This document shows, in pieces, positions 5,685-63,800 of a stretch of DNA of 64,000 nucleotides. The stretch covers positions 17,444,490-17,508,489 of the forward strand of contig NC_049994.1 in the NCBI RefSeq assembly GCF_000003815.2, written 5' to 3'. The first letter of the stretch is position 1, and every line of letters begins with the position of its first letter. Origin of the DNA: Branchiostoma floridae (taxonomy: Eukaryota > Chordata > Leptocardii > Amphioxiformes > Branchiostomatidae). Position numbers and translations under genes: made by a program. Below the pieces are notes generated by a model. It saw nothing but the letters and a program-made list of their open reading frames with translations. It made no database searches and had not been told where the DNA came from.

Positions 5685-6410
5685 GTGCACATACCGTAGG
5701 GTGTATCCAGTCCAGGTGCCAGAAAACCTATATCACCCCCGTCCCGCCCCGGTGTTGCCTGCTGTACATACCGTAGGGGATATCCAGTCCAGGTGCCAGA
5801 AAACCTATATCACCCCCGTCCCGCCCTAGTGTTGCCTGCTGTACATACCGTAAGGGATATCCAGTCCAGGTGCCGGATAACCTATGTCAACCCCCGTCCC
5901 GCCCCGGTGTTGCCTGCTGTACATACCGTAAGGGATATCCAGTCCAGGTGCCAGAAAACCTATATCACCCCCGTCCCGCCCTAGTGTTGCCTGCTGTACA
6001 TACCGTAAGGGATATCCAGTCCAGGTGCCGGATAACCTATATCAACCCCCGTCCCGCCCCGGTGTTGCCTGCTGTACATACCGTAGGGGATATCCAGTCC
6101 AGGTGCCGGATAACCTATATCACCCTCCGTCCCGCCCTAGTGTTGCCTGCTGTACATACCGTAAGGGATATCCAGTCCAGGTGCCGGATAACCTATATCA
6201 CCCCCCGTCCCGCCCGGTGTTGCCTGCTGTACATACCGTAAGGGATATCCAGTCCAGGTGCCGGATAACCTATATCACCCCCGTCCCGCCCTAGTGTTGC
6301 CTGTTGTACATACCGTAGGGGATGTCCAGGTGCCGGATAACCTATATCACCCCCCGTCCCGCCCCGGTGTTGCCTGCTGTACATACCGTAGGGGATATCC
6401 AGTCCAGGAA
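5685..6410 (-). repeat. 77-bp minisatellite copied from the 3' junction of protease exon 6
   Basis: About ten units of roughly 77 bp, read on the minus strand, contain the exon end CTGGACTGGATATCCCCTACG and its donor GTATGT. The genuine junction is the last unit (exon end 6387). The copies at about 5688, 5766, 5844, 5921, 5997, 6075, 6152, 6231 and 6308 repeat the donor inside the intron. Units are contiguous without spacers. Open frames across the array are by-products. The unit length is not a multiple of three, so use of a decoy donor would usually shift the frame. Confidence 0.9.
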
Positions 6411-60800: not shown

Positions 60801-63800
60801 TATGGTACAAGTTCAATGTTGCATTATGGTACAAGTTACTTATGTTGACCTTCCAATCCCAGGATGCACCTTGCCCTTAAGGCATATAACGAGCTGCTGA
60901 TGACCGTAAACGCGATGGACGCCTCGAAGGACCCGGCCGTGAGAGACAGCGCCAACGTGATCAAGAGTAAGGCCCTGGTTTTTGTCTTCGTTCACAGATT
61001 TCTGAATCAGGAAAGATTTTGGTCTTCATTATTAGTGCGAAATGAGGTGAAATTTGCAACGACAGTAACTTTGACCAATACTAATTAATTTTTTAAAACA
61101 CAGCTATGTTTAAAAATTCTTTGATATGTTCATTCAAGTTGGCTTCCCATTAATTTTTGCATTATTCTCGTCAACATAGAAGCTTCTTCCTCTGAACCGT
61201 TCCTATTCTGTGTCAACAAGTTGCTCTCTGAAGGTGTGATGCTATCTCAGGGCTTGAAATACTTTTTTTGCATACCTGCACTGGTGCAGGTGACATTGAA
61301 AATTACCTGCACCAGACAAATTTTACCTGTACCACTCTGAATTTAGGAAGTATGGATCATACTAAAACGGTTGAGGAACCATTGCTATTTTTTTTTCTTT
61401 TATTGCGGTAACAGTCAATGTAGCTAATAACAATTCACATACACCTGCATCATTTATGTATAAAACCCAGTACATGGATCAGTGCAGGTTAGGTGCAGGT
61501 AGACATCAGAAATACCTGCACAGCTCTAATTTTACCTGCACTAACCTGCAGGTGGTATTTCGAGCCCTGTATCTGTACATGTAGATAACTATAGAGATGC
61601 CCAAGTACTCCTGGTAATATTTATTGTTGTTTCCAGGTAACATTTTCTATGTGATGGAGTACCGAGAGATTTTCCTCACCCTCCTGAGGAAGTTTGACGA
61701 GACCAAACAGCCAAAGTGAGTATTAACAACATATAATTCCTTATGTCAAAATATCTTAAACAGTTTGAAGAAGCATATTCATTATTTTGGATGGTGACCT
61801 GAAGCCACTAGCCCTGTGATAGTAAGCCTGCGACCTTCAGGCAAAAAATTATTAAACCTCTGCACATAGAGAACATGATACACTTATTGAGAAGAGTGCC
61901 TCAGTTTTCTTGGCCAGTGCTTAAAAAAGTGAGCTATTGTATAGCAAAGCCACATTGCACTATCAGCTATCAAAACAGCATTATGCTTCATCTCTAAGCA
62001 TTACACTTAGAATTTAATGAAAGAAGATGATGATTATTGTTGCTCCTTCCTCAGAACGTACCTGAAGGACCTGGTTGAGACGACCCACGTGTTTATCAAG
62101 ATGCTGGAGCGATTCTGTAAGACCAAGGGTCACATCGTTGTGCAGGTAAACACCAGTGCCTTTTGTTATATGTTATCAGTGCCCCCTAGGGATTATGATT
62201 GGCATTGCAGTCCTTAACACTGAGATCTGCTGCACTGCCCTGCCGGTTCTGTAAGACTAAGGGTCACATCGTTGTGCAGGCAATCACCTGATAATTTTTG
62301 CATCCAGTTGTATTTCCCCATCTTGCAAGGGTGAGACATCCTTGCACTTCGGATTTGTCTTGTTGGTTTTCACTGTTAAGATTAAGAATAATGAATGTCT
62401 TCCTTTTTCGTATAATTTACTAAAACCTACATTTTCCGTTCTTTTTTATCAGAAAAAACGCAAGAAGACCAAGCGCAGAAAACGGACAGCTGAGCAAGGT
62501 ATTGTTCACCTCTTTGCTTCTCATAGATGGTACACAAAGTCGTAAGAAATCTTAACTAAATCTTAATTACTTATAGAACTGAAATAAGTTAGAATAATGA
62601 TGATGCAAGGTGTGATTATATTTTGAATGACTCCTTTCCCCAACATAAAAGATAGAAATACAGATATGCGTCTGCTTTGATAATATTATCCATTAAAAGT
62701 TCCTTCAAGAATGATACATTTGCAGAGGTAAAAGGCATTCTTAAGACGTTCCCTTGTGTCTTAAGGTACAGCTGGCCCTGCAGAGCCGTCAGAAGAAGAC
62801 CTGAACACGGTGTGGGACGGGCTGAGCGGGGACCTTTCAACATTCATCCAGGGGGAGGGAGAGCTGCCCCAGGACGTGGCTCCTTTTGATGCAGCCTTGG
62901 ATACCCCACTGGAGGAACAACGGTTGGTCCTACCACGCTTTGAACTTTATTTTGCATGACTTTGGTGTTGCCATGTACACATTACAGCAGAACATTAGGA
63001 GTTTTGTTTCAAACTATGTCCTCAATCGACTAAGGTGTAAATGAGTATTACTACTTAGCTTTGGTTAGGGGCACCCCCTTTAATCTCAAATGTCCTATGT
63101 GTGAGGAGAGTCACACCTGGAGCATGTTAAGGAACCGACCACACTTATTGAAAAGGGCAAATCCTGGTGTTAGTGGTTCAAACCTAACAATGTGATCTCT
63201 TGCAGCTTGTATTTACATGTACTCTACAAAACTGCTGTGTTATGTCTAAAGGCAGCTTACTCTTTACACAGAACAAACAAAACATATCCCTTTCTAGAGG
63301 TCTCTGTTTCTGTTGATTTTATTATCTGGAATTTTTGGCAATATAGCTAGAAAAAGACAGCGGTTGTCTTATTTTGAGTTTTTTGCTTATGTCCACTGCT
63401 TCATCGGTTAATTATAACAGTCTCTCATATTACTAGAAAGCTCGGTTGCTAAGTGTGACTCACTGTACTAGAAAAATAGGAGGAAAGAATTTAAATGCAG
63501 GGTATTTTATATACCCCACAGTGTGCAGGCGATGATCTCCATCCAGGACAGTTTGAGGGGAGGAGACCCGGGTCGGGCACTGGCTACGCTGCGAGCTGCC
63601 AGGTGAGCGTGTTGTCTTTACCGGATTCTTGCAAAAACTGACATAAAACATCCTAATAATCATGGCTATCCAATCTGTCCAACGACTAGAAAAATCCATG
63701 TAAAGCTGTTTTCGATACCCCTTTCACAAACCTACCAACTCTTTGATCTTAACAGATAGACTTTGACTAAATTTTTCTTCTAGTTTATTCCATTTTTCCT

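What the first reader, a model, noticed from the sequence alone, without database searches (positions are those of the whole stretch)
5685..62290. Splice-junction minisatellites in four genes: ladders of decoy exon ends
Seen: protease exons 2, 5 (both ends) and 6, ORC4 exon 6, RNF113A exon 7, and TIMELESS exons 1, 2, 3, 7, 9 and 15 each have the exon edge with its splice site copied into the adjoining intron, from one copy up to about 17. Both acceptor and donor sides are affected. The copies always face the intron and never extend the coding exon. I recall minisatellites over exon-intron borders ('mirage' minisatellites) being described at an amphioxus gene, so the class may be known; a dozen cases in 64 kb is a density I have not seen stated. 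Inference: slippage or repair near splice sites tolerated because the terminal genuine site still works, or even buffering splice-site mutation.
Basis: partly seen in the sequence, partly recalled or inferred. Interest (0 to 1): 0.88.

Follow-up and report, generated by a model that had tools for sequence, protein, structure and literature searches.

The report
Amphioxus "mirage" repeats at exon edges
In amphioxus, short stretches straddling the end of an exon have been copied, sometimes many times, into the neighbouring intron, leaving rows of look-alike splice sites; this is a known amphioxus oddity, dense in this window and found at a few percent of the exon edges sampled elsewhere.

Summary
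The window lies in a 513-Mb genome that fits Branchiostoma floridae. Of 87 splice junctions modelled in four genes, 11 have a nearby copy spanning the splice site; all 46 copies lie on the intron side. The class is known: amphioxus "mirages" in Adh3, globins, troponin C and PGBD5 (passages of PMC3087553, PMC3902484). In 201 kb chosen without regard to repeats (18 of 20 random loci, six CCT genes), 10 of 291 modelled junctions are affected (3.4%, CI 1.7-6.2%), 4.3 expected by chance placement: 2.3-fold, P 0.013 at one cut-off, 0.013-0.085 over five. One of the 10 rests on an exon I placed after seeing the array. Conservation of the exon copy alone could give about twofold. Best account: ordinary local duplication, tolerated because the site beside the complete exon is still used. 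The window is denser (12.6%) but was picked for it. Buffering is unsupported. A 16-fold genome-wide excess of donor ladders is contaminated by a foldback element and is not used as evidence.

The parts
5686..6408 (-). Protease exon 6 donor mirage: ~77-bp units, 9 copies besides the genuine donor whose last exon base is 6387
8239..8795 (-). Protease exon 5 donor mirage: 32/23-bp units, 16 copies besides the genuine donor (last exon base 8768); one copy has lost GT
8869..9042 (-). Protease exon 5 acceptor (first exon base 8914) with one copy 113 bp into the intron
10624..11614 (-). Protease exon 2 acceptor mirage (first exon base 10748), units of about 100-157 bp; 6 intron-side copies by gapped alignment, 4 by the ungapped scan
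18986..19444 (-). ORC4 exon 6 donor (last exon base 19375) with two copies at 111 and 256 bp; the nearer one has lost GT
28699..29245 (+). RNF113A exon 7 acceptor mirage (first exon base 29200): 122-bp unit, four copies, two of them 100% identical to the genuine one over 196 bp
45298..45894 (+). TIMELESS exon 1 acceptor (45830, in the 5' UTR, inferred; ATG at 45876) with five upstream copies, main period about 102 bp
46335..46575 (+). TIMELESS exon 2 acceptor (46557) with one degenerate copy 175 bp upstream
47103..47325 (+). TIMELESS exon 3 donor (47139): 60-bp units, 3.5 copies by TRF; one copy passes the spanning test, at 127 bp
49503..49774 (+). TIMELESS exon 7 donor (49538) with degenerate copies at 66 and 134 bp
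50648..50847 (+). TIMELESS exon 9: the start of the exon (50806 on) copied to 50648-50690, without the splice site; not counted as a mirage
60614..60861 (+). TIMELESS exon 13: intron repeats that end just short of the acceptor (60863); not counted
62110..62288 (+). TIMELESS exon 15 donor (62145) with one 45-bp copy 134 bp downstream, GT changed to GC

Best explanation
These are amphioxus 'mirage' minisatellites: local duplications, at offsets of about 23-186 bp at the junctions examined, that happened to include an exon edge and in some cases expanded in tandem. Shown: copies span the splice junction, lie on the intron side, and keep the splice dinucleotide in most cases. Inferred: they persist because the spliceosome keeps choosing the site joined to the complete exon (exon definition), so the copies are near-neutral; they are not specially targeted to splice sites but are seen there more easily, because the exon partner is conserved and only the intron copy decays; larger arrays grow by slippage or unequal exchange like other minisatellites. 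Where the genuine acceptor is the last of a row of equal sites, simple 'first site wins' scanning cannot be the rule.
For: Two methods agree on 11 of 87 junctions. All copies of 22 affected junctions are on the intron side. In the window 0 of 41 copies at coding junctions would leave an open frame. The published B. floridae RNF113A protein joins exons 6 and 7 without insert. Sample chosen without regard to repeats: 55 arrays, 4.33 expected on a junction, 10 seen, about the factor that exon conservation could give. One array (L023 1282-1677) covers a stop codon and 3' UTR instead of a splice site, as a general tolerance model predicts. Two loci from the globin search (L033 157 bp, L037 155-158 bp) fit the published globin mirages BflGb9 and BflGb6 in unit length and side (PMC3087553).
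Against: Young arrays (identity 0.9 or more) are also above expectation outside the window (6 of 27, 2.43 expected, P 0.037). The window itself is 4.3-fold. Core splice dinucleotides differ less than the bases around them (3 of 150 against 200 of 2946; per junction: donors 6% against 9%, acceptors 0 against 9%), which neutrality does not require, though copies are not independent and the scan favours matches there. No transcript data were seen.
Confidence: 0.72

Rival explanations
1. A duplication process prefers splice junctions, for example damage or template switching linked to transcription or splicing.
For: Window 11 seen against 2.55 expected; young arrays outside the window 6 against 2.43, P 0.037; TRF arrays in the six CCT genes 1 of 4 against 0.22 expected.
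Against: In the pooled sample the excess is 2.3-fold at best and P rises to 0.075-0.085 at stricter cut-offs; TRF arrays in random loci 3 of 19 against 1.40 expected, one of the three on a predicted exon I judge false. Raw coverage shows little contrast. The apparent 16-fold genome-wide donor-ladder excess is contaminated by a foldback element.
Confidence: 0.13
2. The copies are kept by selection, as spare splice sites or as regulators of intron retention.
For: Splice dinucleotides differ less than neighbouring bases; copies mostly score like the genuine sites.
Against: In the window use of any of the 41 copies at coding junctions would shift the frame or bring a stop; several copies are degenerate or have lost the dinucleotide; an equivalent array lies over a stop codon (L023).
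Confidence: 0.06
3. Copy numbers are partly an assembly product: repeats or two haplotypes merged side by side.
For: The published chromosome-scale B. floridae assembly comes from about tenfold Sanger reads of one diploid animal with haplotypes merged by HaploMerger2 (passages of PMC7269912); that G000 is this assembly is inferred from species and size.
Against: Many copies are diverged (65-93% identity), so not merged reads of one sequence. Mirages are reported with length differences between haplotypes and somatic instability at Adh3 (PMC3087553, citing a paper I could not open). The globin loci are no independent check, since they probably rest on the same reads.
Confidence: 0.07
4. They mark intron birth by tandem duplication of an AG|GT stretch (Rogers model).
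For: The globin paper proposes mirages as a source of new introns (PMC3087553, section 16).
Against: That model puts the two copies at the two ends of one intron. The 11 affected junctions lie in 11 different introns, one end each.
Confidence: 0.02

Closest known systems
Mirage minisatellites of amphioxus Adh3, globins BflGb6/BflGb9, troponin C, PGBD5
   Same: Tandem copies spanning an exon-intron boundary, at either end of an exon, many with AG or GT kept; unit lengths of tens to about 160 bp (PMC3087553 section 16; one passage of PMC3902484)
   Different: New genes (TIMELESS, RNF113A, ORC4, a trypsin-like protease; in the sample CCT, ABC-transporter, filamin and WD40 genes) and a count against chance; no RT-PCR or haplotype data here
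Partial exons with splice sites in introns of amphioxus VCBP3
   Same: Partial exons with canonical splice sites in introns, similar to the neighbouring coding exons (passage of PMC2632668)
   Different: That passage gives no repeat units or counts
Intron gain by tandem duplication (Rogers; Gao and Lynch), known here only from citations in PMC3087553
   Same: Internal duplication that includes a splice-like site
   Different: Here the copies sit at one end of existing introns

Membership tests
Amphioxus mirage minisatellite | Repeat unit spans an exon-intron boundary | tested here: met
   11 of 87 junctions
Amphioxus mirage minisatellite | Occurs at acceptor and at donor ends | tested here: met
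   window: 5 acceptors, 6 donors
Amphioxus mirage minisatellite | Many but not all units keep AG/GT | tested here: met
   43 of 46 window copies marked as kept, 3 lost
Amphioxus mirage minisatellite | Host is a lancelet | tested here: met
   RNF113A 99% to B. floridae C3Z059 over its full length; two globin loci with the published unit lengths
Amphioxus mirage minisatellite | Regular splicing is undisturbed | tested here: inconclusive
   Only indirect: published RNF113A protein lacks an insert; no RNA data
Amphioxus mirage minisatellite | Length differs between haplotypes or somatically | not testable with these tools
   A haplotype search did not complete
Intron gain by tandem duplication | The two copies form the two ends of one intron | tested here: not met
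   11 affected junctions in 11 different introns
Foldback or other dispersed repeat | Window units recur elsewhere in the genome | not tested
   The DNA search did not complete

The most novel reading that the evidence does not exclude
Exon edges are preferred sites of local duplication in amphioxus, so that of the order of ten thousand junctions (7 in 165 kb of random loci, scaled to 513 Mb: about 9,000-45,000, a rough extrapolation from ab-initio exons) carry rows of near-equal decoy splice sites that the spliceosome ignores: a natural library showing that exon context, not site strength or order, decides.
Probability: 0.15. Interest if true: 0.72.

Novelty: new member of a known kind. Interest (0 to 1): 0.42.

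Why it matters
Rows of near-identical splice sites that differ mainly in how much exon they carry are a natural test of how splice sites are chosen. Acceptor rows bear on it most: the genuine site is the last one, so 'first site wins' fails. The sample suggests that such rows are common enough in amphioxus for statistics. They are also a likely source of gene-model errors and indel variation in this genome.

Tried and rejected
Self-blastn missed short offsets, so I wrote a diagonal scan.

Genome-wide donor ladder: three AGGTAAG at 25-55-base gaps gave 3552 matches against 215 for the pattern read backwards (control listed). Single-site frequencies differ about twofold (343 against 160 per Mb in 19 random loci), and long arrays are counted many times. 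With CAGGTAAGT at gaps 36-48, 37 matches (control 2) fall by my count in 21 arrays, 17 of them with a period of about 51 bp on many contigs, the period of a foldback element seen in L013. That the 17 are this element is inferred from period and motif; their sequence was not seen. The ladder count is therefore not used as evidence. A motif absent from the element and an acceptor motif were asked for and never answered.

Ab-initio exons: before pruning the 20 random loci gave 237 predicted junctions, 52 with copies. Dropped: L019 (satellite), L028 (tandem exon duplications), minus-strand repeats of L012 and L025, short exons of L013, one exon of L020 (8506), the L020 acceptor 6009 (low-complexity array), and pairs with both copies inside exons (L016, L018). 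In L040 I removed two predicted exons and set one by hand (3174-3288) after seeing the array; without it the sample is 9. Before the last prunings the random set had 88 arrays, 4.84 expected, 11 seen. L025 donor 7619 has copies beyond 300 bp and is not in the 10; with it 11 of 291. Pfam supports L012, L018, L025, L027 and L023; L011 and both L020 genes had no match. In one search the L040 acceptor is one base off, so its 'LOST' marks are an artefact; one search uses 3175.

Full report
What was checked. The window is G000:C16:17444490-17508489 of a 513-Mb, 431-contig genome. Its RNF113A model is 99% identical over its full length to UniRef C3Z059 from Branchiostoma floridae, and two loci from a globin search carry duplications with the unit lengths published for B. 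floridae globins (157 bp; 155-158 bp, PMC3087553), so the organism is very probably B. floridae.

Gene models. Exons of TIMELESS (18 modelled, gene runs on past the window), ORC4 (12), RNF113A (10) and a trypsin-like protease (6 modelled) were placed from tblastn guides, open frames and splice consensus. Joined TIMELESS and protease proteins score E 8e-74 and 4e-63 in Pfam. In all 87 junctions were used; the TIMELESS exon 1 acceptor, in the 5' UTR, is inferred.

The repeats. Eleven of 87 junctions have a copy across the splice site by both methods, with 46 copies in the ungapped scan, all on the intron side. They range from a single 45-bp copy (TIMELESS E15) to 16 copies (protease E5). Two RNF113A copies are identical to the genuine one over 196 bp; others are 65-90% identical. 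TIMELESS E9 copies exon only, E13 intron only.

Chance in the window. Counting each array once by its unit length, 2.06 of 38 arrays should fall on a junction, 11 do. Raw coverage gives almost no contrast (12.6% against 10.4%), because arrays fill introns with copies; counting each source position once gives 3.5-4.0%. The window was picked for its repeats, so this is no genome-wide estimate.

Sample chosen without regard to repeats. Twenty random 10-kb loci and six CCT genes found by Pfam PF00118 were scanned. After dropping two random loci and some exons (listed under Tried and rejected), 201 kb hold 291 modelled junctions and 55 arrays with offset up to 300; 4.33 were expected on a junction, 10 seen: CCT 3 of 110 junctions, random 7 of 181. 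P is 0.013 at this cut-off and 0.013-0.085 over five. Seven of the 10 lie in genes with Pfam support (CCT three; ABC transporter, filamin, an oxidoreductase-like gene, WD40); L011 and two in L020 have none. One CCT exon was set by hand after the array was seen. The rate, 3.4% (CI 1.7-6.2%), is below the window's 12.6% (Fisher P 0.0025).

Is there targeting? A duplication with one partner in a conserved exon decays on one side only, so it stays recognisable about twice as long as one between two intron stretches (inference). That alone could give the 2.3-fold excess. Arrays of 0.9 identity or more are also in excess outside the window (6 of 27 against 2.43, P 0.037), so weak targeting is not excluded. 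A genome-wide pattern count looked like strong support (3552 against 215) but is contaminated by a foldback element whose 51-bp units carry donor-like and acceptor-like motifs.

How it works. Of 41 copies at coding junctions in the window, 30 would shift the frame and 11 would keep it but bring a stop; five more lie in the TIMELESS 5' UTR. The published RNF113A protein shows the genuine junction. The copies therefore must be little used (inference). They score much like the genuine sites but carry only part of the exon, which points to exon definition. At acceptors the genuine site is the last of the row, against simple scanning. An array over the last codons, stop and 3' UTR of a biotin-ligase-like gene (L023 1282-1677) shows the same tolerance away from splice sites. 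Splice dinucleotides differ less than their surroundings (3 of 150 against 200 of 2946), which could hint at selection but is biased by the way copies are found.

What is known. Section 16 of PMC3087553 (read whole) describes mirages in globins and cites Adh3 and other genes, with undisturbed splicing by RT-PCR, haplotype length differences and somatic instability at Adh3; one passage of PMC3902484 adds troponin C and PGBD5; a passage of PMC2632668 reports partial exons with splice sites in VCBP introns. The Adh3 paper was not held. Literature searches listed no genome-wide count; they cover open-licence papers only. So the kind is known; the new points are the genes and a first count against chance.

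Limits. Copy numbers depend on an assembly that is probably the Sanger-based, haplotype-merged one (passages of PMC7269912; identity inferred). No RNA, no second haplotype and no sister species were available.

Noticed in passing
L013 4440-6290: Foldback element of about 1.8 kb: 51-bp tandem units in opposite orientation in its two halves, between 22-bp perfect inverted ends; each unit holds a donor-like and an acceptor-like motif. Arrays of the same period and motif appear on many contigs.
   Followed up: partly
L023 1282-1677: 140-bp array, 2.8 copies, over the last codons, stop codon and 3' UTR of a biotin-protein-ligase-like gene: mirage-like without a splice site.
   Followed up: partly
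window 43196-44891: Reverse-transcriptase-like open frames of a retrotransposon between the LRR gene and TIMELESS (judged by eye).
   Followed up: no
window 16196-16489, 52570-52890, 58780-59095, 61250-61570: Related dispersed element ('...cctgcaccag...') in several introns.
   Followed up: no
window 53427-55230 and 56539-57670: Two related TRIM-like genes on the minus strand inside a TIMELESS intron (named by eye).
   Followed up: no
window 37385-37824: Degenerate repeat of about 76-bp units upstream of an unmodelled minus-strand gene; possibly a 5' UTR exon edge.
   Followed up: no
L032 1076-1372: 17-bp array near a globin exon, not one of the two loci matched to published mirages.
   Followed up: no
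L016 1078-1378: 94-bp duplication with a donor-like site beside a possible exon that my predictor missed; not counted.
   Followed up: no
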